This document shows positions 39,001-64,000 of a DNA stretch of 64,000 nucleotides, piece after piece. The notes beneath the pieces are model-generated. The model searched no databases. It saw only the letters and a list, made by a program, of their open reading frames with translations, and was not told the origin of the DNA. The position numbers and the translations under genes are program-made. The stretch's first letter is position 1. Every line of letters starts with the position of its first letter. Source of the DNA: Neospora caninum Liverpool (lineage: Eukaryota; Apicomplexa; Conoidasida; Eucoccidiorida; Sarcocystidae); the NCBI RefSeq assembly GCF_000208865.1, contig NC_018397.1, positions 1,860,001 to 1,924,000 on the forward strand, given 5' to 3'.

Positions 39001-41413
39001 TGCATGCAGAGATGCGTTTAGGTTACCGCATCAGACAGAATGAACAAGACATCAAAGCACATGCGCGCCATGCCGGCTTCGGGCATAGAAGCTCATCAGC
39101 GACAAGAGATGTCCACCGCACTTTGTCCTTGTAGGCGTAGGTATCAGGTGCCCTGAGAGGAATATCAAAAACAGTTTTCACGGACTGCCTCCGGTGCCTC
39201 TCCGCGCATGTTGATCTCCCCTTCATGGACACGCACCAGTTGGAAAAGAGGCGACGACAGCACAAAATGTGAGCGTGCCGGGGAGAGACAGTCTAACCTG
39301 GAGAGAGGCAACAACTGCATTGGTCGCCGCGATGGCAGGGATGATGGAGCCGGCGATAGCCTGGATGGACCAGCGCGACTGGCAAACAGGAACTCACGCA
39401 GAAAAGAAAAACCTTCCGTGAGAGGCAACAAGTCCACACGAAGCCGAGAACAGATTCTTGACGCGAAAGAGACGTAACAGTTTCTGACCGCATCTTCCTC
39501 AGTCGTACTCGACCATGTGGCGCTTCACAAGCACCAAGCTGTAGAGTCGACGTGTGTTTGTCCTCAGTCGTTGCCGCAAGCGGTTTTTTTTCTGAAATTT
39601 GTAGGCGACGGCTGTTTGCAGCACTCCTCGTGGTATCTACTCGTTATCGCCGTCGTTTCTCCCGGTAAGTTCCCTTGATCTCCTCTCTCCTGAAATATGC
39701 ATTACCCGTTCGTCTGTCTTCTTGGCTAAATCGTTCCGTGTTCCCTTCTCCCATCAGTGACCACCTTCTCTCTGCGTCTCCCTGTCCTCACTGTCTGTCT
39801 CCCTCGGCCACGCCTCTTTCGCCTGCGGTCTCTGCGTTCCATGTTCTCTGGTCCTATTATCTCCTCTCTCGGGATGCAGTCCGTACCTTGAGTGGAATGT
39901 GGAAGTTATGCATGCGAAGGTTGGCAGCGGCAGCAACGAAGTCCATGGCGAGGTCATCGTCTTTGTCGAACGGGATTCCTGCTTCCCGCTTCCCTGTTCC
40001 CGCCTTTGCGTCACGCTCTGTGGTTTTCTGTCGTTCAAGAAGCCCCAAGAAACTCCGCTCAAACACCTCTTGGCACTCCTGGACGCTCCACGTCCGCTGA
40101 CTCTCTAGGCCTTTGCCTTCCCCTCCCTGTTTGACTGTCTTCTTCACACTCGCGTTGTCTCGAGACGCTCCATTTGTCGCCGGGGCGTTTTCCCATCCTG
40201 CACGCTGTCTGTCTTCGACACTTGTCGCGCCCGTAAGCCCTTGGACGCAGAGCGGAGTAGGGAGGATGTCATTTTTCTTCGGCGCGTCCTTGTTTTCTTG
40301 GCTCAGCCTGAGAAGCTCGACAATCTGATCGTGAAACAGTTCCTTCATCATCTTCCGACTCATCAGTCGCATTGCCTCGGCCCTCTCCCTCTTGCTTTCT
40401 GCCGCCGCACCCAGCTCTGTCGCTCCCGCTGTGCTATCCCCGTCGAATGCGCTTTCTGGCTCTACAGGAGACACAATGAGGAAGGTTCTCAACTGCTCCT
40501 TGAGGTCGGAGAGAAGGTTTTCGTTATCCTCAACCCCGAAGACCAGTTCGTAAATCATTTTGGCCCATGCAATACAGTGCTCCGGTCTTTCGGGGCGCTG
40601 GCGCAGTGTACAGACAGGAAAGCGCTGCTGGTCTCTCGGCTTGGCTTCACAGTCATAGCAGAGCGTTTCGTTCTTCAGAATCGGCATGACTTGCCCCGAG
40701 TATCCCGTGCTGCCAGCCTCGATGAGAGGCACGCCGGCAGCGATGCAGAGGCCGTTCAAATGGCGCCTCGCTTTCTGGTTATCCAGGGCCGATATGACGA
40801 CTTCATACGTCTGGAGCAGCTGAACGGTGAAGCCCGAAGAAAGGATGTTCATTTTCTGGCCCACTACGCCCCACACTGTCCTCCCATCGATGCACACATC
40901 CTGCGCCTCGACTCCTTCGCCCTCGGTCGCCGTCTCAGACAAGGCGGGTGAAGGCGCCTCGCCTTTTGCATCAGGTCCGTGCTTCCCATCAGTGCTTTCT
41001 TCATCTTCCTCGTCGCACTCGGAGTCGACGTCGCCGGCCTCCTTCAGCTGCCGCACGGCTCTCGCTCTCTTGTGCGCGAGAGACTGACGCTCTTCTCGGG
41101 GAATGAGGGCAGAACACGAGGCTGCGAGGACAAACGCCTTGCTCAGTCCCACATGTACATTTCTGAAGAAGAACTGACGATTCAGATTGCTCACGTCAAT
41201 TGTGTCCAGATCGACTACACACAGCCGCCGAAATCCGGACAGCAGAAGATCTTTGCACACTTCGCAGCCTATCCCCCCTGCGCCGACAACGAGGACGCGG
41301 ACTTTCGAGAGACGCGGAGCAGCCGAAGAAGATGAATGGCAAGAAGAGGCGGAAGACTCGGTGGGGATGAGGAGCGGATTGAATGCAAAGCTTGGAGACG
41401 ACGCAGGCGCCAT
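36026..41413 (-). CDS. UBA2: SUMO-activating enzyme E1 subunit 2 (UBA2/SAE2)
   Basis: This is the catalytic half of the SUMO E1, which with AOS1/SAE1 adenylates SUMO and carries it as a thioester before handing it to UBC9. The minus-strand exons are 41413-39887, 39378-39298, 38799-38671, 38504-38364, 37885-37756, 37516-37428, 36997-36750 and 36227-36026: 848 residues, all phases consistent. Seen: a nucleotide-binding GAGGIGCE at about residue 44; DLDTIDVSNLNRQF; YEVVISALDN; the zinc pair CYDC near 252; the active-site Cys in FPVCTLRQRP near 267; AIAGSIIPAIAATNAVVAS near 520; the second zinc pair CFLC; a ubiquitin-fold region (LANFGIVSGSILTATDF); and a C-terminal tail with EIVVLDDD and EIVIDDDD. 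It is longer than the usual about 640 residues because of an acidic insert after the nucleotide-binding part and a longer catalytic-Cys domain. The first ATG of the open frame lies 30 codons further up, but MAPASSP gives the better start. Confidence 0.95.
37917..37938. repeat. (TA)11 microsatellite in an intron of UBA2
   Basis: Eleven TA units lie just upstream of the acceptor for the UBA2 exon at 37885-37756. Confidence 0.95.
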
Positions 41414-41800
41414 GACGACACGCCGGGGAAAAGATGGGGAAAATGACGCGGAGAATAGGTGCCACGGCAGAGGTGCTGGGGAAGAAAAGACAAAGCGTGG
41501 CATTCACAGATACAGAGACTGTCAGCTGCAGAAAAACACACGTCCACAGAAAGGTGTGATTGCAGACCATTCTCTTTGGAAAGAAACAATCGCCGACTAT
41601 TCTCGTCTAGGGCCAAGCGCATGCAGCTGCTCATACCCGAAAACAAAAGATCGACGACGAACTTTCTTCCGCAAAGCCTTTTCAGATAAAAGATGGAAAA
41701 CCGAGTCGCACTTGATGATTATTCGGTGAAAAAACGTGGTGGGAAAATTCGAGAAAGGAATGGGATGTGTATACAGAGTTCGTGGATAGCGAATGTCATT

Positions 41801-44815: not shown

Positions 44816-47800
44816 CTAGTTGAGATGGTCGGAGAAGAAGGAGCACTCGGTAGCAAGAAGCACGGTAGGGCTTTGAACAGTGTCTCCAGAGGATCTTTCC
44901 CCGGCATCAATGGTGCTGGTGTGCGCTGACTCCATTCGCGATCTGCACGCGAAGGAGAGGGGGACCCAATCAGCCGGAAGAGATGAGTGGTGGCAAGGCG
45001 TCCCCAGAGGACCGGTAGGATAGGACTGCGAAGGGTGATCTTGTCCGTCGGCCTGCGCGTCGAAACTCGAACTAGCCTGGTCCCAACACTCCCTCAAGCC
45101 AGAACCCGCAGGGCCCTGGACGACCGCAAAGTGCTGCCGTAGAGATTGCCCGATGCCGGGCACGCTCCCCTGAGGTTCGTCATCTCCACTCAGGTGAGAT
45201 TCAACACTGCTAGGACAGCCCTGTTTGGGTGAGTAGAATAACAGTTCTTCCGATGGTGGCAGCCGATGGGGGAGACACGCGCCCGTCCACACGTGGGGCA
45301 GTCGACAACACTGAGGAAACGAGACATTCTGATTTTCTGTCCGCGATAAGAGTTCTAAAGTTGAACATTTGGGTGCCTTGATTTTGGGACCGAACACCGA
45401 TCCCGTGGACCAATAGTGCTGATACAGCTGACGAACTGTAGGGCGCTTTGAGGGGTCCTTTTGAAGGCACCATCGACAGAAGGGTACAATCCACGGATAG
45501 GTCGAGGTGACATTTGGAGGAAAACGTCCATCCCGAGCGTTTCGGAAATTCATGGCTTGTTCCATAGCGGTGTTGCACCTTGTGAACAGATTTAAAACGA
45601 TGAGACCCAAGGCCCATATATCCACGGAGAAGTCATATCTCCCGCCTTGAAGTTGCTCAGGTGGCGCATAAGCTCTAGTTCCGACTCCTGTCGTTCGTTC
45701 CTCAAACACCGGGGATACCAAGGGAGGCCTGTCTCGAGGGTTACTAGGAAGAGAAGGGCTCCGATGCCGGGCTTTGCTTCTTTGGCAAGGACTGGACCAC
45801 CTCTTAGCGACGGTCTTCTCTTCTTGCACAAACGCTGCTCCTCCTTTGCCGACTTGGTCCTGTCCGACCCGTAACAGCTCGGGAGAAAGAAAAGGAGATT
45901 TCTGTCGAGCCGCTTCATTGAGGTCTGCAGGTGATGTCAGAGGTAGTGACCCGGAAGGAAGATACCAGGGAGACCATGCCCCGTTTTCGGATCCTTTAAC
46001 GGGATTTCGGCAACCAAAGGACGGGGAACATGACGACGAATCTGCCGCCCTCATCCGCCTCGCAGCCAGTACTGGGCTGTTATCGTTCATTTGCTGCAAT
46101 AGGCTTGGTCGTCGCTCTGTCCTTCCTTCAGATATGCCCACGGCAGGCGTGTTCGCCTGTAGGACTATCATTTGATTGGAACAACCGTCAACCGCAGCAA
46201 TAAGCTGCCCTGAACAACGCCAGGTTTCACGGGAAGACCTCCAGACCTGACTTGCTCCAGGAACCTGGCGGCAGGTATCTGGACAAAAGCCGCCCTCTAC
46301 TGCAGTTGCACGCGGCGTGGCGGGGAGCAGTATCTCCGGTGAGGAAGGACCGGAGCGGGAAAGCGTGTATTTCTCCCTGCCACCCTTCTGCTCTTCCTTG
46401 TCCATGCCCAGCCGCATTTCCACTTCGTCCTCTTCCCGAACGCTGTCACAGAGACGACAATATGGGTCTCCGCAACTGTGTGGATTAGGGGACCACATGT
46501 CGCAACAAGGCCCTCCTGCAATCCCACAGCACCCTGCGCCGTCAATCGAGGCCGCGGAGCACATTCGGGGGCTCCGAAATTCGCGCTCGTGCCTGCCAGC
46601 CACGCGACTGCATTGATTATGCAGATTCACACCCGATGCAGGCCAGTGGAGGCCACAAGGAGTTGGACACCAGAAAATGGGGAGCTGACCGCGACGGTGC
46701 GGTGAGTTGCACGGACTGTGAACATTGTGAACACAGGCAAACCCGGTGCGCGGTGAATGGAACTGAAACTGACCCACCGGCTTTACAGGAGAAGCACAGC
46801 CACTATAATCCCTGTGCCACCCACCGCAGGCACAGCTTTGCGCTGACGTACTTGCAAGCCTTGGCGACCCGAAAGTACTTGCTGGTAAGGACACGTTTTT
46901 CATGCTGGGCAGTATACCCAGCATGGCGTTGTCGTGGGCGTGCCCCGACCCGCTACCACAGCACACGACACGGCACGTGGGGGACCCTCCAGACGGAGTT
47001 GCAGTCATTGCCCCCACTCTCATCCCCACGCTGAAGCGGTCACTCCTGCTCTGAACGCAGTTCTCACATTTTTGCCTTGTATCATCGATGGGTCCAGCGG
47101 CGTGGACGTTTACGGTACACCACAAACTCGGCGCAGGCCTCAACGCTTTTCCGCCAGGACTGGCCACTGGGCTCTGTGCCTGATGGGGGACAGAAGCCTT
47201 GTTGGTGAGGATGCCTCCATTCACGTCAACCTCACTCTTCCCCAAAGGGGGCGGTTGGTCTCCTCTGCGTGACCACGGCACCATCTCAGTCTCGCTTGTA
47301 GCAAGATCGAGTTGGATACTGGAAAGGATGGGGCTTTCACAAAGGCGAACGTCCAACGTTGTGCGAGGCGTCAGGCAAGGAGCATGCGAACCGCATATCT
47401 TAACGGGAGTGGACATCTTGCCCAAAACAAGGGGTGTGCCATTGGTTAATGTTTCGTTCGTCCGTTCTGATGAGTCGTCTCTTGATTTCTGTAAACCCGG
47501 CGAAGGGAGAGCAAAACATTTCCCTGTGCTTGGGAGAGGCACCGCAGCACAACAGTTGGGTGAGATTTCTGGAGCGTCGGAGATTGCCTCTCTGCCAACA
47601 GACTGTGTCACGTTCTCGCCGACGCCACTATCCAGTGTTGGTCTCGTTGAACGGCGTGTGCTTCCGTCGCCTCTCAACATATCATTTTGGGGGGTTCGTT
47701 CCGCAGACGCAGGATATGGCATGCACGACGTCCCGCAGGGAGAGTTTTGATGAGCCTGAGTCTTAAAACGCGTGTCTTCGTGGATATTAGCGTGCGGCTG

Positions 47801-50800
47801 AGCGCCACGTGTTAAGGATGTGGCCGAACAGGAAGGCGAACTTGAAGGCACGTGGCAGTTGTGTAGGCACGCACAATGATTACTTTGTTGCCGCTCTTCC
47901 TGAAGGTTTTGGTGTCTACAGGTGTTCGCTGTAGTGGAACTCATATGAACGCTCTCAGCCCCTTCCTTCATGTTCTTCACTCCATTTCCGCCACTGTGAC
48001 GCACACCAGAGAGCGTAACCTGGCAGCCTTCATCTTTTTTCGCATGAGCCTTCTTGCCTGTGGGTGTTGGGGAACTTAGGGTCACCACAGCGGAGTGGCT
48101 TTTTGAGGAACTATCCTTTGAGGAGATGCCGCTATCGCGGCTTGATCTTGGGCTTGCTTCCATATCGCCACTGAAGGCGAGGCCGAAATCGCCAATTTTG
48201 ACTACGCCTGTTTCTTTGTCGATGAAAATATTCGATGGTTTGAGATCACGATGCATGACGCCTGCACTGTGGCATTGGTAAAGACCTGAAATAATCATCG
48301 CCACAATTTCCTCGTTTCTTTCCGGATCAACTTCAGGCGTCTGCGCGATATACTCGTCGAGGCTCATCCCGCAATACTCCATCTGGATATATAGCGTCAC
48401 GGCAACTCTGCATTGATTCCGCTCACAGAAGTGAGAACGACCGAGGAAGGGCCGGCGGTTGACTGGACGGTCAGGATTGTTTTGCGAGGAAATGTTGGCA
48501 TTAACAGGTCCCTGGCCTCGCCTCTCACTCGATGGGGCTCTTCTTTTCACGGTCTCGCGCCCGTGTGGAAGATTGAATACCGTAACTTCTTGCCGGCCAT
48601 CGCCCTGCCTTTCTTTATGAGGTGACTTATCATCACAGGAAATCTCCAACCGTCCACGCCCTCCTATGAGGGGCAAGGGGGAACGGTCTTTTATGTTGTT
48701 GTAAGACGTTCTCGGTGAGTGTGAAGAGTCTGGCTTTCGTATGGAAGCATCATTTTTGTCCTCAGGAACAGCTTCACGCGGGGAGTCTCTTGCTCCTGCC
48801 TGCCTCCCTGGGACCGAGTGAATTATACCATCGCTGGCTTCCTCTTTGAGGTACGTAAATTCAGCAGCGCCTACCACTTCTTCCGCTAAGCACCGTACCT
48901 TTATCTTCTGGGCTTCACCTCGCCATCCCTCAACGTCATCAGCGGGCAGCCAGCGAGCGGAGAGTGAACTTTGACTCCTTCCCCGACAGAGGTAGGTTTT
49001 TTCCTCTCGGCAGCGGGGGTAACAGCAGCTATGACGCCTTCGTGATTTGCAAGACCGCTCTGTACTATCGGCTGTACCCATTATGCCTTGTTGCCGACCA
49101 CGGCATCCACGCGCTCCTTTTTCCTTCTGCTCTGCAGTTATGCCACCTACAGCGACGGGGGACAAGCCCGCAGGCTGCCAGTTAAAGGGGCGATGCAACG
49201 GACGGTCTTTTTCCGGGTCAGTTTTCTCAACTGCCATATGACCCATCAGCCATTCTCCCATCTCCATCCTCCCACTGTCTCCCCGGTTCGAGTCTATGGA
49301 TCGGATGCCGCCTTTCACGTCTGTGCCATGCTTTGTTGATGCCTCCGCCGTGTTTGCGCCTATATCGCCGAAACAGCTATATCGTGCCTTTGCATCAGAA
49401 ATCCACACCCGTCCCGCCGCGTTTTTCTCTTCCTCTGTCTTTCTTTCTTCTCCCGCAGAAGAAAGGGTGCCACCTGGCTCTACTTCCGCGAAGACAATCT
49501 GTAGGCCGTCCTCACCGCCGTCGTCACTGTAGAAGCCGTAACACGGCCAAAAATCGTCGGAGACAAGACACTTCGTACCGGGCTTCTTTCCGGCGTTTCT
49601 GATGTTTTTGTCACCTGTCGACGGGGTCTTCAGCCGCACAGGGGTCCTGTCGAGGCTCGTGATAGGGTGGTCATGGCTCCATACGTTTGATGGCAAGTCT
49701 TCATAAGGTCCTCCCGTCCTATAATGGTATACTCCTTTCTTGCTTCTCACCTCGTCATCATCATTCGTATCTGTGCCCTCGTACCCAGGGAGCGTAACAT
49801 TTCTCTCTCTCTCTTTCTGTGCTGCTGGGATCATCGCACCATCCGGCGGAGACCCGTTTTCACCAGCGTGTTGTGACCTAGGCCCGTACGCCCCTTCTCG
49901 CCCTTCTTTCGCTTCAGGCGACCTCCCTAGTTTTTTCTCTCCATCCAGTCTTTTATTTATGCGCGCGAAGGCATGGCCGACTCCTTGGGAAACAATAGAG
50001 GTCCCTTGTCCGTTCCCAACAGCATCTTCTCGATCTAACTCCTTCTGCCCCACGTCCTCATTCCATTTGTCTGTCACCTCATCCTTCACTTTTTCCTTGT
50101 CTATTTCTTCTCTCAGATGCTCCTCCTGATCCCTAGCATTGCCTGCGCTCCATCGCACGCAATCCGCGGTTGAGACAGTGGTCTCTTGCCAGAGTGGGCA
50201 TGACTGGCCGTTGCACGAAAGAGCACAGTTGTTCCCGCTGGACATACGGTGATTCCCCAGTCTGTCTGACGCCGCCTCGTGGAGGCGAAGAAATTCCTTT
50301 CTTGCCGATTCCAGGGCTGCATTGAGTGTTTCCGACACCTGCTCTCTTCGCCAACTTCGATTTCGTTTCTCGCTCCGCAGCGTTCCCCATTCTGCCGATA
50401 CAGGGCGTCGGCCCGCTTGTCCTGACTCACTCTCTTCATCTGACTCCCTTGTGGTACGTCGTTTTGCTCTCAAAACCATTCCCTTTGGAGAGCTCCCACA
50501 CAGACTGGAACCGCCATGTTGGTCAGAGAAGAAATGCGGGGTCTTACATTGATTATCACCCTCACTCAGACCAGCACAGGGACCGCTATCGAAAGGAGAG
50601 CTTGCTCCGCCCACGCACCGATTAGAGGGTCTGACGCGCGCTCCCATCGCCGACAATGTTGATTGTGCAAAGTGCCTGTGTTTGCGCTGGTCGGTCTGGA
50701 CTGTGTTTTGCTCGCCCACTTTGCGGCGCCCCCTACGAACCGAAGCACACGGTGGACGGGTGCATGAAGAGGCTCTGGGAATTCCGTTGGTGTTCCTTTT

Positions 50801-52584
50801 CCTTGTACCGTCTTCCGCCATAGAACAACAGAAAGGCGATACTGGTAGACTGCCTCGGAAAGCCTTTACCTCGCCCTTCTTTCCTCCATCATAGTCTGAG
50901 TTTCTCTCGCCAGTCTCCTCGCTCTCAGGCTCACACCAACTGCTACTGCGACTGATTCTGCGGGCGTGAGATTGTCTTCGTCCATCGCTCTCTTCTCCGT
51001 CCTCTCGTTGTTCTCCTATCTTCCACCGCGAGGTGCCGCCATCCCGGAAAATCTTCTTTACCTTGGGACAGGGGATTCGACCACTCGTCCACGGTGTCAG
51101 CGGAGAGCGGACCCAACTCGCCTTCGCTCCCAATGGCGCCTGACCCCGAGATGCAGGAAGGGAGGTCCGGTGCATCGCATTCTCGGGGGTAAGAGGCGAA
51201 GGGGAAACTTCCACCCAGCTATTAAAATAGCGTACAATATTCGGGTGCGCGTCCAGTCGCCGTAGGCACTGCACTTCTCGAAGAAACAGGGCCATGTGTG
51301 CATCCAGATGCTCTCGGGTCGCCGCAAACTGGAAACGACAACAGGAGAATACAGACGATGCCTATTGCACGAAACTAAGTCGAGATGCTGGATACGTAAC
51401 AAACCGTTAGTGACCCGGGTGGTCTGTGTATGCACATCAATATTGTATATATAGATGCTTGACAGCGCTACTCCAGTCAGTCACAACCGAGCTGCTTCGA
51501 TTGCTCTTTCTCTCCTACATTTTCTTCATGTCTACGTTTATTCAGTCCTCGTGACACGGTCTCACAATCGCGTGCCTGGACCCACCCGCTACTGTGTTCG
51601 TCCGTCCCACGATCTTGTCACCTGCCTCAGCGTTCCTGTCCCAAGAATTTTCTTTCTCTTTGGCTGCCTTCTGTGAGTTTGGTTTACCTTGATCTCTTTA
51701 ATTGCGTACGTCTGTCCGTCGAGAACGTGTGTGGCCTTGAGGACTCTTCCACAGCCTCCCCGTCCGGCGACGATGACGCCTGTGAAATCTTTGCTTAACC
51801 GCTGAGAAGCCAGAGTGGGGTTACTATCGCTATCTCCTCCATCGCTGTTCCCCTTGCTTCCCCTTTTCTTCTTCTTCGCTGACCCTTCGCCCCCCTTTCT
51901 GCATTCCATGTCTCCGCTCGCGCTCTGCCGACGGCATAGCCGCGCAGACGTGTGGTGGAAGTGCAGAAGGGGGGGCGAGTCGGATCTGAAATCCGCTGGA
52001 ACAAAACAGGCCTCGTGCCCTTGCATTGTTGGTCCGCCAATGCTCTCAGTCGATGTCTGTGGAGTAGGATAAACCGCTGGACTTTCATTAATCGGCGACG
52101 TTAGGGCCCGCAGAGACTTTCCCTTCTCTGTTGTGTTGACCTTTCTCTCTTCCCCAGAAACATCAGTTCCCCTCTGTTCACCCCTCTGTTCTTCTCCCTC
52201 GCTTTCGCCTTCACCCCCTTCCGCTAGTTCTTCGTCATCTCTTGTCCGTCCCTGGTCTCTGTATCTCAGCAAATCATTGCCGTCGTTGTCGTGTGCTGTC
52301 CTCGAGGTACACCATGCACTACCGTGTTGAGGCAGGAAGGGCGGGGAGCATCTTTTCCCGCTGTTTCCATGTCTGTCCCCACCGCTACGATGATGACTCA
52401 TAGGCGCAGATGGGTAGACATGAAACAGAGATGAAGGAGGCGAAGAAGAGGATGAAGAGCACAAGGAATTTGTGAATGTTGTTTGTTTACTGCCAGGCAA
52501 CGCAGAGGAGGCGAAAGCATACTCCTGTGCCTTGCACCTACTATCCTCCTCGGGATGCGACGACAGTCCTGCATCGCTCGCCAT
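44816..52584 (-). CDS. eIF2alpha kinase with two giant inserts in the catalytic domain
   Basis: A Ser/Thr kinase of the eIF2alpha-kinase family, which dampens translation initiation under stress. Two exons, 52584-51688 and 51328-44816, join in phase 0, giving about 2469 residues. Seen: Gly-rich loop GRGGCGRV; ATP-binding Lys in YAIKEIK (about 296), just before the intron; the alphaC Glu in FLREVQ (about 317); NIVRYFNSWVE, typical of PERK/HRI/GCN2; hinge MEYCGMSLDEYI; catalytic HRDLKPSNIFID (about 1326); DFG (about 1346); GTRAYAPPEQ (about 2182); DIWALGLIVLNLF. The insert between beta4 and beta5 (about 920 residues) is a family hallmark, although very long; the one of about 820 residues between DFG and APE is unusual. 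No signal peptide, membrane segment or GCN2-type His-tRNA synthetase domain was seen, which favours a cytosolic enzyme such as T. gondii IF2K-B over ER-resident IF2K-A. The ATG at 52584 (ACATGG) is the first in frame after a stop. Confidence 0.9.
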
Positions 52585-58806: not shown

Positions 58807-61800
58807 TCAGTGACGAAAACTGCCGAGTTCCGGCCGTGGTCGACTACCACGGAGGGTAAGACGGTCACTTCTTCTCGTTGGCGACACTGCCTCATCCTCT
58901 TTCTCCGACGAAGAGAGAGAAGGGAGCGAGTCAAAGCCCTCACTCCTGCACGTGCTCTTTGTGCGAGCAGAGTCACCCCTGTGCATTCTTCCTCTTCTGC
59001 CGCCCCTTCCCCGTCTTCCCGGTCGCGCTTTTCGCTGGCTTCTCCGCCCTTCCGTTTCGTCGCCGACGTAATCTTCATCATCGTCTGGATCATCCTCTTC
59101 TTCGTCTTCCTCACTAGAAAGCTCAGTCTGATCGTGATCGTCACTTCCAAGATCTCCTCTTTCCCCTGTGCCTTCGTCAGCGTGGGGCTCGCCCACGTCG
59201 TTCTCTTCGTCTCGGCCTTTGCCTGTTCTGCTCCACGTTTTTGAAAGCCTCTGTTCTGTGGCCGCCTCGTTCTGCCTTTTGCCTGCACTGTTTAGCGCTG
59301 ACGTGTTCCCGTTCAGCTGTCCCCTCTCTTTCTCCTCGTCTCTTCTCGCCTTTCTATCTTCCTCCTTCCCCCCTGAGTTTTCCTCGGCGCCCCTCCCGCT
59401 ACCCTTAGCTGTCTCGAGGCGCGTCTTCCGCTCCTGTTCTTCCTTGTACGTCTGCACACTCAGAGCCAACGCCTTCTTGAGTTCGTCTTCCCCGCCTTCT
59501 GATTCGTCCCTCGGTGCTTCGTCTCCTTCCTCCCGCTGTGCAGTCGACCGCTGTCGACGCCCTCGCCGAACCCCACCGCCGCCTGCCGTGGCGCTCCGTC
59601 CTGGCATTGTGGCCGCACCGCTCTCGTCCCGACTACATCGCAGCGTCTTTCTTTCTCTATCACTGCCTCTCGCTCTTTCTTGTTCGTCTCCCTCCCCATA
59701 GTCCGAGAACAAGGCACTGCGTTTGATAACGCGACCGCTTCGCGTCGTCCCGAGAATCGCACCGCATGCAGGGCCGCGACCTGAGGAGTGGCTTTCTGGA
59801 ACGGCCGAGGAAGCGTGATCGTGTACGCCCACTGGACTGCCTGGACGTCGCGAAGGAAGGCCCCTGTCTGCCTCGCCTTCTCGCTTCCCCTCCTCGGCGT
59901 CTGTCCTCCGTCTCGCGCCTGCCGCCTCTGCCCCAGGACAAGAAGGGACAGTGACGCATCCCTCGTTCGGCTCGTCTCCAGATGCTGGGAACGCGCGAGC
60001 ACAGGAGGCAGAAGCTCCAGAAGAAGAGGCCGAGAAGTCCCGAAGTGTCCGCGCACGCTTTGTTCGGTCGGCTGGAGAAAGGGCACCGAATCGACTCTCG
60101 TCGAGCGGAGACAAGAAATCGATTTCCTCCGGCGACAGCCTTTTCCGGGACGAGCAACCGTCTTGAGGAAGCCGACGAGTGCGCGAGACAGCGGTCTCAT
60201 CCATAGAAACGTCGGCGTCCCCCTCTCTCTTCGTCTCTCTAGCTTCTGTCCCCCCCGTCGAACTCGTGGCCCACGACGAGGAAGACGCAAGCGAAGGATA
60301 TGGATTTTTCGGGGCAGCTCGCAGAGTCGAGGCAAGTCGGTCTTCCGTTTCTGTCTTACGAGGCCCTTCGTTTCCTTCGTTGTTTGTCGACGCTTCTCTC
60401 TGCTCCGCTACCAAAGCGTGGCTGCTCTCACCGAGAACGCTGGAAGAAGACGAAGAGATCCCTGGCACTTGACTCGCCTTCCTTGTGTGCTTCAGCGAAG
60501 AGCCGGGAGGCGATACTGCAGGGAAGGTGTTTGTCTCTTCGAGAGAACCCTGGTTTTCTGCGGTCCCTTCAAACCGCCGTAGACGCGCCTTTCTCCGCTT
60601 TTCATCTTCTTCTCTTCTTTCGTCTTCCTGTGTTCGTCTGCCTTCCGCCGCCTGTCTCTCGTCTTGTGCTTCTCTCACTCCGTACTCGACTTCCCCTTCG
60701 CTCCCTTTCCCCTCTTCGGTGCCACTCTCGGGCGTCGGCTTCCTTTCTTTGACCCACTGGATCGCAGCTAGCTGGATGCGTTCTTCTAGTTCTCCAGCCA
60801 GTACCAGTTGGGTCTCGGCGTGCCGCCGCAGCTGCCGGAGAAGGTTTTGCTGAGTTGCCTCGGGATCGCCGCGGTCCATGCCTTGGCTCTTGCCTCTTGC
60901 ATTCGTTCCCTTCTCGTTCAGCAGCGCCTTCGGCAGCAAGCCTTGCCGAATCAGCTCTTCTTCCAGACGATACGACAGCGTGTGGACCGGGTCTCCAGGG
61001 GGGTTGAAGAGCCGGCAATCGTAGAGGAGAAGATGAAAGTCGAAATGGAGAGCAGGCTCACGGCGGTAAAAGCCGTTCCAGAGACGCTCGCGAATGAGCG
61101 CCAAACTGATGGGGAGAGGCACTTCTTTCCAGTACCGCTCGAGCCACGACGGCACGCCCCTTCGAGCGCCGCGTGTCTCGCCGATCGTCTCGATGGGTTC
61201 AAGGAACAACTCAAACAGGAGAGGCGACGAATGGGTGTCGTCGCCTTCTGGTTTCCCATCCTCGCCGCCTGCATCTGGGCCTCGAATGGCCGAGGCGGAA
61301 CTTCCCTCGTCCTCTTCGTCTTCGTCCTCGTCTTCTCGTTCCTCGTTGTCGGCCGCTGCCCGCCGCTTCCTCGGTCGCCCTCGCCGTCGCCTGCGGTCGC
61401 CTCGGCGTCGGGCCTTCTTCACGCTGTCGTCTCTCCCGGGTTCCCCGTCTTCACCCAAGTTCGTCTCTGTGTCTTGCATCATCATCAGTGCGTCAAGAGC
61501 AGCAAACAGTTCGAGCTGGCGCGCCCGCGGAAACTCCGCCTCTTGTAGCTTCCACTGGAGCTCCGCGTGCATGCGGTCGCGTTCGCCCACTGGGAAATCC
61601 ACTTCCCATGCATTCAGCCACTGCTCTTGATCTTCTGTCTGCCTTTCAGCGTCGTCCTGCCGAGAAAGGGCAAACGATGACTGCTTTCGTCCTCTCTCGT
61701 CGTCTTTCTTTCCCCGCCGCCTAGAGGCCCCGCGTGCGTCCCCGGACCCCTCGCCAGAGCCGAGCGAGGTTGAGGATGAGGCGCGCTTCTCGTCCTCTTC

Positions 61801-64000
61801 ACCTGAGTAGTAGTGAACTCGGATCGCCTCCAAGCCTAAGCTCGCAGTTTGCATCCAGCGCCTCTGTTGCAGGCTTCGCTCCACGAAGAAGTCGTTGCCG
61901 AAGAGGGAAGCCGCGTTTTGCCCCACGCGTCTGTCTCGCTGAACGCGCTGCGTCATCGTTTCCTCCCGTAGGCGGAGATGGGCGCAGTTCACCACTCCCG
62001 GGGTAGGGAATACCGGCCAGTCGAACGACGCCAGGGAGGCCTGGATGGCCAGCGCCCCGTCGATTTCGTCCTGACCGCTCCCATCTCGGGTCCGCATGCC
62101 ATCTTCACTCCCGCCGTCTCGCGCGTCTCCGCTTTGGAGGGACGGCGAGGACGACGCGCCGCCAGATGCCGACAAACAGGATGCAGAAAGAGAAGGCCTG
62201 GGGGAAGGTAAACCAGGCCCTCCCAGTTCCTCAGATTTCCTTCCTTCTCCCTTTCCAGAATTCTGCTCTTCTGTTCCGTTCCCTTCCGACTCGCCATCTC
62301 GGGGGCCTCGCGCAGACGCCGAAGCCGCTCGCGCAGCCGCAGCGGCACCGGCCAAAATGGACGGGCAAGGTCTGGAGCTCGTAGCAGGCGTCGCAGAAGA
62401 GCCAGAAATGGACGCAGAGGAAGAAGAGAGGAACGGCGGATGGGTAAAAGGAATTGAATGCGGTTTCTGCGCTGGAGAGAAGGCTTTCGTTAGGAGAGTG
62501 TCAGGTCTCCTCTTGATTTCCTCGACGCGTGCAGTATAGAATTTCCCGTCCATATACGCACGGCAGTCCTCACCTTCGCGGAGCTGAGCGAGGCGCAGCA
62601 GGCCTCTATTCACGTCCAAAAGAGGAACGAGGTAGTCAGCCTCACCGTCCAGAGACGGGGCAAAGTGAACTTCGAAACGACGGCCGTACAAACACTCGGG
62701 ACGCACCACAGACAGCTCGAGCACGGCGAAAATCGCCACTGGCTCTTCGTCGACTGGAAGGCCTGCAGGCGACACGAACACACAGGGGACAGGGTCGAAG
62801 CAAGCACATGAGGAGAAGGGGGGGAAAGGAACATGATAAAGCGAGAGCGAATAAAACCACCACAACCGCGCCAGAATAAAAGAAACGTGAAGGACAGGGC
62901 GGCACAGCGATGCTTATCTAGAGCACTGGATTGGATACCCAGGGAACTGTGCTCCCATTAATAAGATCATAATATAAGTCACCAGTCATGTCATACCAAT
63001 CAGATGACAACTGAAGCTAGACTCCCTGCCACACATTAAAAGCAGTCCAGTGGGGCGGTGGTGTACAGCAGTCATACAGAACTTGGTTGTCTGTATCTCA
63101 AAACTGGAGTCATACTCAGTATCCTAGGTACTAGAATGTCTCTATTCGATTCTCGACACAGTTCAGGACGCCTGAGGCTTCTCAGGCCCTCAAGCGAACC
63201 GAACCGAGATCCCGCTTGGCGGCACCACAAAAAAGAAGTGGAGACTAACTCACAGGTCCTTGGCAGGAGGACCAAGAAACCAGTCTTCTTCGCATTCTAC
63301 GCGCATGCAAAAGACACGCCCACTTTGGTGCATCCGAGTCACGTGTACCGACCCGCTAAAAACAAGTTGCTGCGACATAGGTGAACAACCTAGCCACCCG
63401 TCTGCTGACACGTTTGCGCTCGTGGCCATGCTTTGAAACCAAAGAGCGGGGTACGCTCGCAGCTGAGGGCCGACGCTTTGGTTTCGTTTCTCTTCTGTCG
63501 CAACACCAACTGATTTCGTCGCCGCGCCCTTGCAGTATACGGCCCCACAGCTTTTTCTCATGTTGAACTACGTGAAAAAGAAATCCGTCCGTGATTCCCA
63601 GACGTTCGCCAGCGCCCCCGTGGGAACTACCACAAGCAATCGGGCCCTCTGAGTTGAAGTGTACGTACCGGGAAACTCGTAGCTGATGTTGGTGACAAGG
63701 ACGTCGCAGGGAAGAAACAGCTCTGGCTGCCAGAGCTGAACGCGGTCGTGAGGCAGCACAGGGTTCTGGTGAAGGTGGGGAAAGTACCTCAACACATCTC
63801 CGAGCTGGGGAACGTACACGCCAACACTGGAGAAGCAGCAGGGAATGTCGTCTGCCGGGGGGAGGACAACGGATTCCAACATGGAGGTTTTCTTCCCGCC
63901 GTTCTCGCCATTGGTTTGTAAGGCAGAAGTCTTCTCACATTCTTTTTCCGTTTCGCCCCCTTCACTCTTCGCCCTGTTGTAACCCGAGGTGGCGTCAATT
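58807..64000 (-). CDS. BRWD/PHIP-like bromodomain protein, C-terminal part (continues past the right edge)
   Basis: A chromatin-associated protein whose N-terminus (expected WD40 propeller) lies outside the window. The exon at 64000-63669 carries GVYVPQLGDVLRYFPHLHQ, the motif that follows the WD repeats in BRWD/PHIP proteins. It joins in phase 1 (donor GTACGT, acceptor CTGCAG) to the long exon 62762-58807. That exon continues with a region resembling the pre-bromodomain block of the family (YLVPLLDVNRGLL, AYMDGKFYTARVEEI). It then has an AT-hook-like RRRGRPRKRR, a divergent bromodomain (about residues 630-700 of the visible 1428: PISLALIRERLWNGFYRREP, then DCRLFNPPGD with the Asn expected to contact acetyl-lysine), and a long disordered tail of acidic and basic blocks (DDPDDDEDYVGDETEG, GRRGRGGRRGR). 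It probably reads acetylated histones in the nucleus. Identity as a bromodomain protein is good; the BRWD assignment depends on the unseen WD40 part. Confidence 0.8.

What the first reader, a model, noticed from the sequence alone, without database searches (positions are those of the whole stretch)
46430..46975. Cys/His-rich cluster nested in the kinase activation-loop insert
Within about 175 residues (about 1750-1930) the insert holds about 19 Cys and 11 His, including CRVVCC, SCACGGWHRDYSGC, CPTPCGLHW, GCCGIAGGPCC and CGDPYCRLC, while the flanking insert is Ser/Pro/Thr-rich. This density suggests a metal-binding or redox-sensitive module. An IF2K of T. gondii (IF2K-B) has been linked to the oxidative stress response, and a Cys module inside its activation segment would be a direct way to sense oxidants.
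Basis: partly seen in the sequence, partly recalled or inferred. Interest (0 to 1): 0.75.

Follow-up and report, generated by a model that had tools for sequence, protein, structure and literature searches.

The report
Cysteine-crowded stretch in kinase switch loop
A stress-response (eIF2-alpha) kinase gene, likely of the parasite Neospora caninum, carries an 827-residue insert in its activation loop with 19 cysteines crowded into 176 residues, which is predicted to react with oxidants or arsenite and so would help switch the enzyme, though this is untested.

Summary
In detail: window 46448-46975 (minus strand) encodes 176 residues with 19 Cys and 11 His. They lie in an 827-residue in-frame insert in the activation segment of an intact-looking eIF2-alpha kinase (2469-aa two-exon model). 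C+H density exceeds most shuffles of the insert (2 of 2000 reach it) and a dinucleotide model of the local DNA (15 of 3000), but that DNA alone predicts about 11 Cys.

A known metal finger gets no support: Cys spacing is no better than shuffled and no Pfam, NCBIfam or PDB profile matches. The redox reading is plausible but untested: T. gondii IF2K-B is needed for the arsenite response, which N-acetylcysteine lowers, and this gene is its likely counterpart by elimination.

The decisive check, Cys conservation across coccidia, could not be made: five protein searches failed and a sixth met the cap. My best guess is an unpatterned thiol patch that arsenite or oxidants modify (0.38), barely ahead of a passive, fast-evolving insert (0.36).

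The parts
51688..52584 (-). Exon 1 of the kinase model: 299 residues, starts MASDAGLSS, ends ...YAIKEIK; Gly-rich loop GRGGCGRV at 51742-51765 (Cys in the usual Phe position, recalled)
   Evidence: weak Pfam Pkinase match, below its cut-off
51329..51687 (-). Predicted intron AAG|GTAAAC ... TTTCCAG|TTT, 359 bp
   Evidence: sequence; exons join in frame; no RNA evidence
44816..51328 (-). Exon 2: rest of the kinase, 2170 residues plus stop
48401..51190 (-). Kinase insert between NSWVEV and TLYIQMEY, about 930 residues
48167..48400 (-). Catalytic core segment with HRDLKPSN and DFG
45686..48166 (-). Activation-loop insert: all 827 residues between DFGLAFSG and VGTRAY (the few of an ordinary loop included); 43 Cys, 26 His, 36 Ser/Thr-Pro
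46448..46975 (-). Cys/His-dense stretch, 176 residues, 19 Cys and 11 His (the finding)
47057..47068 (-). CENC (CX2C) just upstream of the stretch
47852..47920 (-). Smaller Cys/His patch CRHQNLQEERQQSNHCACLHNCH nearer the DFG motif
45356..45685 (-). End of activation segment and C-lobe: VGTRAYAPPEQ and the segment NTAMEQAMNFRNARDGRFPP that aligns to PERK and HRI

Best explanation
This is an 827-residue insert in the activation loop of an eIF2-alpha kinase, likely the Neospora counterpart of IF2K-B, and its cysteine-dense stretch would act as an unpatterned thiol patch that arsenite or oxidants modify, likely changing how the activation segment sits and so the kinase's activity. Shown here: the insert, its position, the Cys/His density, and intact catalytic motifs on both sides. 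Taken from the literature: the T. gondii kinase is required for eIF2-alpha phosphorylation after arsenite. Inferred: orthology, direct thiol modification, and coupling to the activation Thr residues (ERTTGVGT) that follow the insert. The patch is thought to be disordered when reduced and to gain order when As(III) or disulfides tie nearby Cys together, not to be a preformed zinc finger.
For: Density beyond composition and local DNA, and beyond 46 other ORF rows. Position between DFG and GT..PPE. Coding: 827 open codons, chance 5.7e-12; no frame-keeping splice pair of the quality set removes any of the stretch. No convincing second copy in its own genome. No non-kinase Pfam domain above its cut-off in the protein, and the highest 19-residue hydropathy (1.48) lies in the kinase C-lobe, so the inserts are the likeliest places for a sensor. 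TgIF2K-B is needed for the arsenite response, NAC lowers it, thapsigargin and halofuginone responses persist without it. As(III) binds C3H1/C4 fingers and orders a disordered three-Cys peptide.
Against: Cys spacing in the stretch is no better than shuffled: CX2-4C 5 against a mean of 5.8; Cys trios within 13 residues 4 against 3.5. Local DNA alone gives about 11 Cys. Single-sequence AlphaFold gives mean pLDDT 32 and 35 (weak evidence). Conservation untested. Arsenite and NAC may act indirectly. Another kinase of this genome has about 562 residues inserted at the same place.
Confidence: 0.38

Rival explanations
1. A passive, fast-evolving disordered insert of a kind seen in apicomplexan kinases; the Cys excess is a by-product of local base composition and drift, and the loop's regulation, if any, is by Ser/Thr-Pro phosphorylation.
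For: Insert has 36 SP/TP against a shuffle mean of 14.4 (0 of 3000 reach it); 23 other ORF rows, some duplicates, show ratios of 0.68-2.07. Two other own-genome kinases hold extra residues at this place in one frame: about 562 (1749-aa frame) and about 39. Cys spacing in the stretch random. Local DNA gives about 11 Cys. Inserts of one apicomplexan kinase group are reported as rapidly evolving (PMC3239843, passages).
Against: 10.8% Cys, with C+H beyond the DNA model in 2985 of 3000 simulations; unmatched in 46 other ORF rows.
Confidence: 0.36
2. A folded zinc-binding module (novel finger) in the activation loop that holds the loop in place and opens on oxidation.
For: Enough Cys/His for several sites; CGDPYCRLC and CENC; fewer charged residues (11.9% against 21.5%) and more aromatics (6.8% against 2.8%) than the flanks.
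Against: No profile or PDB match; CX2C 1 against a mean of 1.9; pLDDT 32 without an alignment.
Confidence: 0.1
3. If the kinase senses oxidants itself, the sensor is a Cys in the kinase core, such as the Cys in the Gly-rich loop GRGGCGRV, and the insert is irrelevant.
For: Gly-loop Cys present.
Against: Single-genome observation; no conservation data.
Confidence: 0.08
4. The CC pairs are palmitoylated and bring the kinase to membranes.
For: Three CC pairs in the stretch.
Against: CC count not above shuffles (876 of 3000 reach it); TgIF2K-B reported cytosolic.
Confidence: 0.04
5. A heme-regulatory Cys-Pro site as in HRI.
For: One CP in the stretch; HRI is said to be modulated by heme at its N-terminus and kinase insertion loop (review passage).
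Against: CP count at or below chance (1 against 1.9 in the stretch, 5 against 6.8 overall).
Confidence: 0.04

Closest known systems
T. gondii IF2K-B (eIF2-alpha kinase; PMC7858062, passages plus sections 7 and 10 read)
   Same: eIF2-alpha kinase, cytosolic type, of a close coccidian; likely the orthologue by elimination
   Different: Its sequence could not be fetched. A word search of the main text gave 0 places for 'cysteine', and the 'insert' places shown concern the knockout cassette
PERK and HRI kinase domains (PDB 4g31, 9rhh)
   Same: Activation-segment end and the segment after it align; best PDB relatives
   Different: In PERK 4g31 the parts before and after the insert align to chain residues 87-172 and 181-276, so nothing of this length lies between
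Activation-segment Cys kinases: Aurora A Cys290 (PMC9952272), BRSK1/2 T-loop +2 Cys (PMC11964447); passages
   Same: Redox control through Cys in the activation segment
   Different: Those are single Cys next to the activation Thr; here ERTTGVGT has none and the Cys sit in a long insert
As(III)-binding Cys sites: AfArsR three-Cys segment (PMC11212059), PARP-1 C3H1 finger (PMC5348335); passages
   Same: Short Cys-rich stretches that As(III) can bind, one disordered until bound
   Different: Not kinases; binding shown by experiment there, not here
Apicomplexan kinase inserts: Pfmap-2 and Pfcrk-5 group (PMC3239843, passages)
   Same: Inserts in or near the activation segment
   Different: About 26 residues and, in Plasmodium, over 100; described as hydrophilic for the Pfcrk-5 group; no Cys-dense stretch in the passages seen

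Membership tests
eIF2-alpha kinase | Catalytic Lys, Glu, HRD, DFG, PPE present | tested here: met
   YAIKEIK, REVQ, HRDLKPSN, DFG, PPE
eIF2-alpha kinase | Best PDB relatives are eIF2-alpha kinases | tested here: met
   PERK 4.8e-26; C-lobe PERK 4.3e-13, HRI 8.2e-13
eIF2-alpha kinase | Kinase insert, and the alpha-G segment (name and role recalled) | tested here: met
   About 930-residue insert; NTAMEQAMNFRNARDGRFPP aligns to PERK/HRI
IF2K-B orthologue | Reciprocal best match with T. gondii IF2K-B | not tested
IF2K-B orthologue | Not ER-membrane type (A) and not GCN2-like with RWD (C, D) | tested here: inconclusive
   Highest 19-residue hydropathy 1.48, in the kinase core; the four RWD matches of this genome lie outside the window. 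Other own-genome eIF2-alpha kinases were not identified; IF2K-A is listed as TgME49_229630/NCLIV_030460
Zinc finger or other known Cys module | Profile or structure match | tested here: not met
Zinc finger or other known Cys module | Paired ligand spacing beyond composition | tested here: not met
   CX2C, CX2-4C and [CH]X2-4[CH] below the shuffle mean in the stretch; over the whole insert [CH]X2-4[CH] is mildly enriched (56 of 3000 reach it)
Zinc finger or other known Cys module | Conserved ligands | not tested
   No orthologue sequence obtained
T-loop +2 Cys redox kinases | Cys two residues after the activation Thr | tested here: not met
   ERTTGVGTRAY has no Cys
HRI-type heme-regulatory motif | Cys-Pro beyond chance | tested here: not met

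The most novel reading that the evidence does not exclude
An eIF2-alpha kinase that carries its stress sensor inside its own activation loop: a disordered cysteine patch that arsenite or oxidants cross-link, directly gating the kinase switch with no separate sensor domain.
Probability: 0.25. Interest if true: 0.78.

Novelty: new variant of a known kind. Interest (0 to 1): 0.42.

Why it matters
[quoted passage not shown] If the activation-loop patch is the sensor, signal detection and kinase switching sit in one loop, a layout that can be tested on purified protein. If it is not, the case still shows how long an insert the activation loop of an intact-looking kinase can carry.

Tried and rejected
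Intron rather than protein: rejected. The 827 codons are open (chance 5.7e-12), though the 176 alone could be open by chance (0.024). No frame-keeping splice pair of the quality set overlaps the stretch, while the predicted real intron's two sites pass the same scores. The mean codon score of the stretch is neutral (-0.029), as is that of the certainly coding C-lobe (-0.015), so it decides nothing.

Zinc-like spacing, Cys trios and Cys-Pro motifs beyond composition: not found in the stretch. Over the whole insert [CH]X2-4[CH] pairs are mildly enriched (26 against 17.0; 56 of 3000 reach it), and over the whole protein Cys trios within 13 residues are too (9 against 5.0; 60 of 2000); both partly reflect the clustering itself.

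Other activation-loop inserts: a first count by eye gave four. Reading held locus L043 showed a stop between the parts of one, and one search gives a second only a 90-aa open frame, so I keep two.

Copies elsewhere: no convincing one in its own genome (best other E 0.02); no relatives in viral contigs or bacterial and archaeal genomes, as expected. Structure prediction without an alignment was too poor to search with. In one search about full-length residues 1703-1757 had block means of 44-55, near those of parts of the kinase; the fragment begins inside that stretch, so it is no check, and I make nothing of it.

The accession TGME49_270240 given for IF2K-B in a 2026 review is one I recall as MAG1, so I did not use it.

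Full report
What is there. The window is G000:C13:1860001-1924000 of a 57.5 Mb, 14-contig genome. Size and contig number fit Neospora caninum Liverpool (recalled, not from a record). The finding lies in minus-strand ORF 44816-51361 (2181 aa). An upstream exon supplies the Gly-rich loop and catalytic Lys; the exons join in frame across a 359-bp GTAAAC...CCAG intron, giving a 2469-aa protein that begins MASDAGLSS. The model rests on sequence only.

What kind of protein. PDB relatives are eIF2-alpha kinases first: PERK at 4.8e-26 for the ORF, PERK and HRI at 4.3e-13 and 8.2e-13 for the C-lobe. The catalytic motifs are present, as is the segment after PPEQ shared with PERK and HRI. Two long inserts split the domain: about 930 residues between NSWVEV and TLYIQMEY, and 827 residues between DFGLAFSG and VGTRAYAPPEQ. 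No non-kinase Pfam domain passed its cut-off. The highest 19-residue hydropathy (1.48) is in the kinase core, and the four RWD matches of this genome lie outside the window. T. gondii has four such kinases: A (ER, PERK-like), B (cytosolic, oxidative stress), C and D (GCN2-like) (PMC13076163 and PMC13071378, passages). By elimination this is likely IF2K-B. That is inference: no orthologue sequence was obtained and the other eIF2-alpha kinases of this genome were not pinned down.

The observation. The stretch runs from CRVVCC to CGDPYCRLC: window 46448-46975, residues 1751-1926, 19 Cys and 11 His in 176. Cys is 10.8% there, 4.3% in the insert before it and 2.8% after it. Shuffles of the insert reach this C+H density in 2 of 2000 and the Cys density in 39 of 2000; for the whole ORF 0 and 11 of 2000. 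A dinucleotide model of the stretch's own DNA gives 11.3 Cys on average; 54 of 3000 reach 19 and 15 of 3000 reach 30 C+H. In 46 other ORF rows from this genome (49 less 3 rows of this gene; 44 distinct, some likely non-coding) the maxima were 15 Cys and 22 C+H. The stretch has no convincing second copy in its genome. It is therefore real and unusual, but more than half of the Cys count would be expected from local base composition alone.

Protein or intron. The insert is open for 827 codons (chance 5.7e-12). No donor-acceptor pair of the set quality removes any of the stretch in frame. It is read as protein.

Is it a metal module? Little supports this. Within the stretch CX2C occurs once (shuffle mean 1.9), CX2-4C 5 times (5.8), and [CH]X2-4[CH] 12 times (14.6); Cys trios within 13 residues number 4 (3.5). 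There is no match in Pfam, NCBIfam or PDB sequences. Single-sequence AlphaFold models have mean pLDDT 32 and 35, which is uninformative without an alignment. Mildly in favour of some order: fewer charged residues (11.9% against 21.5%) and more aromatics (6.8% against 2.8%) than the flanking insert.

What else the insert shows. Ser/Thr-Pro dipeptides number 36 against a shuffle mean of 14.4, with 0 of 3000 shuffles reaching that. Other ORF rows of this genome are often enriched too (ratios 0.68-2.07 in 23 rows, some duplicates), so this insert (2.5) is at the high end of a general tendency. Activation-loop inserts are not unique: a kinase on C12 has about 562 residues between its matches at the same profile position in one 1749-aa frame, and one on C10 about 39. 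This one (825 between matches) is the longest of those.

Mechanism. In T. gondii, parasites without IF2K-B show minimal eIF2-alpha phosphorylation after arsenite but respond to thapsigargin and halofuginone, and N-acetylcysteine lowers the arsenite response of wild-type parasites (PMC7858062 section 7). As(III) binds C3H1 and C4 zinc fingers (PMC5348335, passage) and orders a disordered three-Cys peptide (PMC11212059, passages). A thiol patch in the activation loop of such a kinase could therefore be a direct target. I commit to this at 0.38. It is close to a passive insert (0.36), because spacing is random and conservation is unknown. Activation-segment Cys control is known for Aurora A and BRSK1/2 (passages), but through Cys next to the activation Thr, which this kinase lacks.

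What is missing. A Sarcocystis neurona IF2K-B is listed at 158 aa with 74% similarity to T. gondii (PMC5371900, passages), apparently a fragment, which says nothing about the insert. I saw no mention of cysteines of IF2K-B in the passages found; the listings named no paper on this stretch as far as titles and starts of abstracts show. That does not show that none exists.

Noticed in passing
window 51742-51765 (minus): Gly-rich loop GRGGCGRV has Cys where kinases usually have Phe (recalled), a second possible thiol site in the catalytic core.
   Followed up: partly
window 45686-48166 (minus): Strong Ser/Thr-Pro enrichment in the activation-loop insert (36 against 14.4), suggesting proline-directed phosphorylation of the loop.
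   Followed up: partly
window 47852-47920 (minus): Second, smaller Cys/His patch (CRHQNLQEERQQSNHCACLHNCH) nearer the DFG motif.
   Followed up: partly
window 48401-51190 (minus), full-length residues 1059-1072: Cys/Arg-rich patch CKSRRRHSCCYPRC in the first kinase insert.
   Followed up: no
G000:C12:6593690-6596155: Another kinase in one open frame (1749 aa) with about 562 residues at the same activation-loop position; its sequence could not be fetched.
   Followed up: partly
window 58810-62913 (minus): 1368-aa open frame with a bromodomain match (1.8e-5).
   Followed up: no
window 39860-41503 (minus): Frame with ThiF and ubiquitin-activating-enzyme SCCH matches, an E1-like enzyme.
   Followed up: no
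literature: PMC13076163: The review's table gives TGME49_270240 for IF2K-B, which I recall as MAG1; possibly a wrong accession.
   Followed up: no
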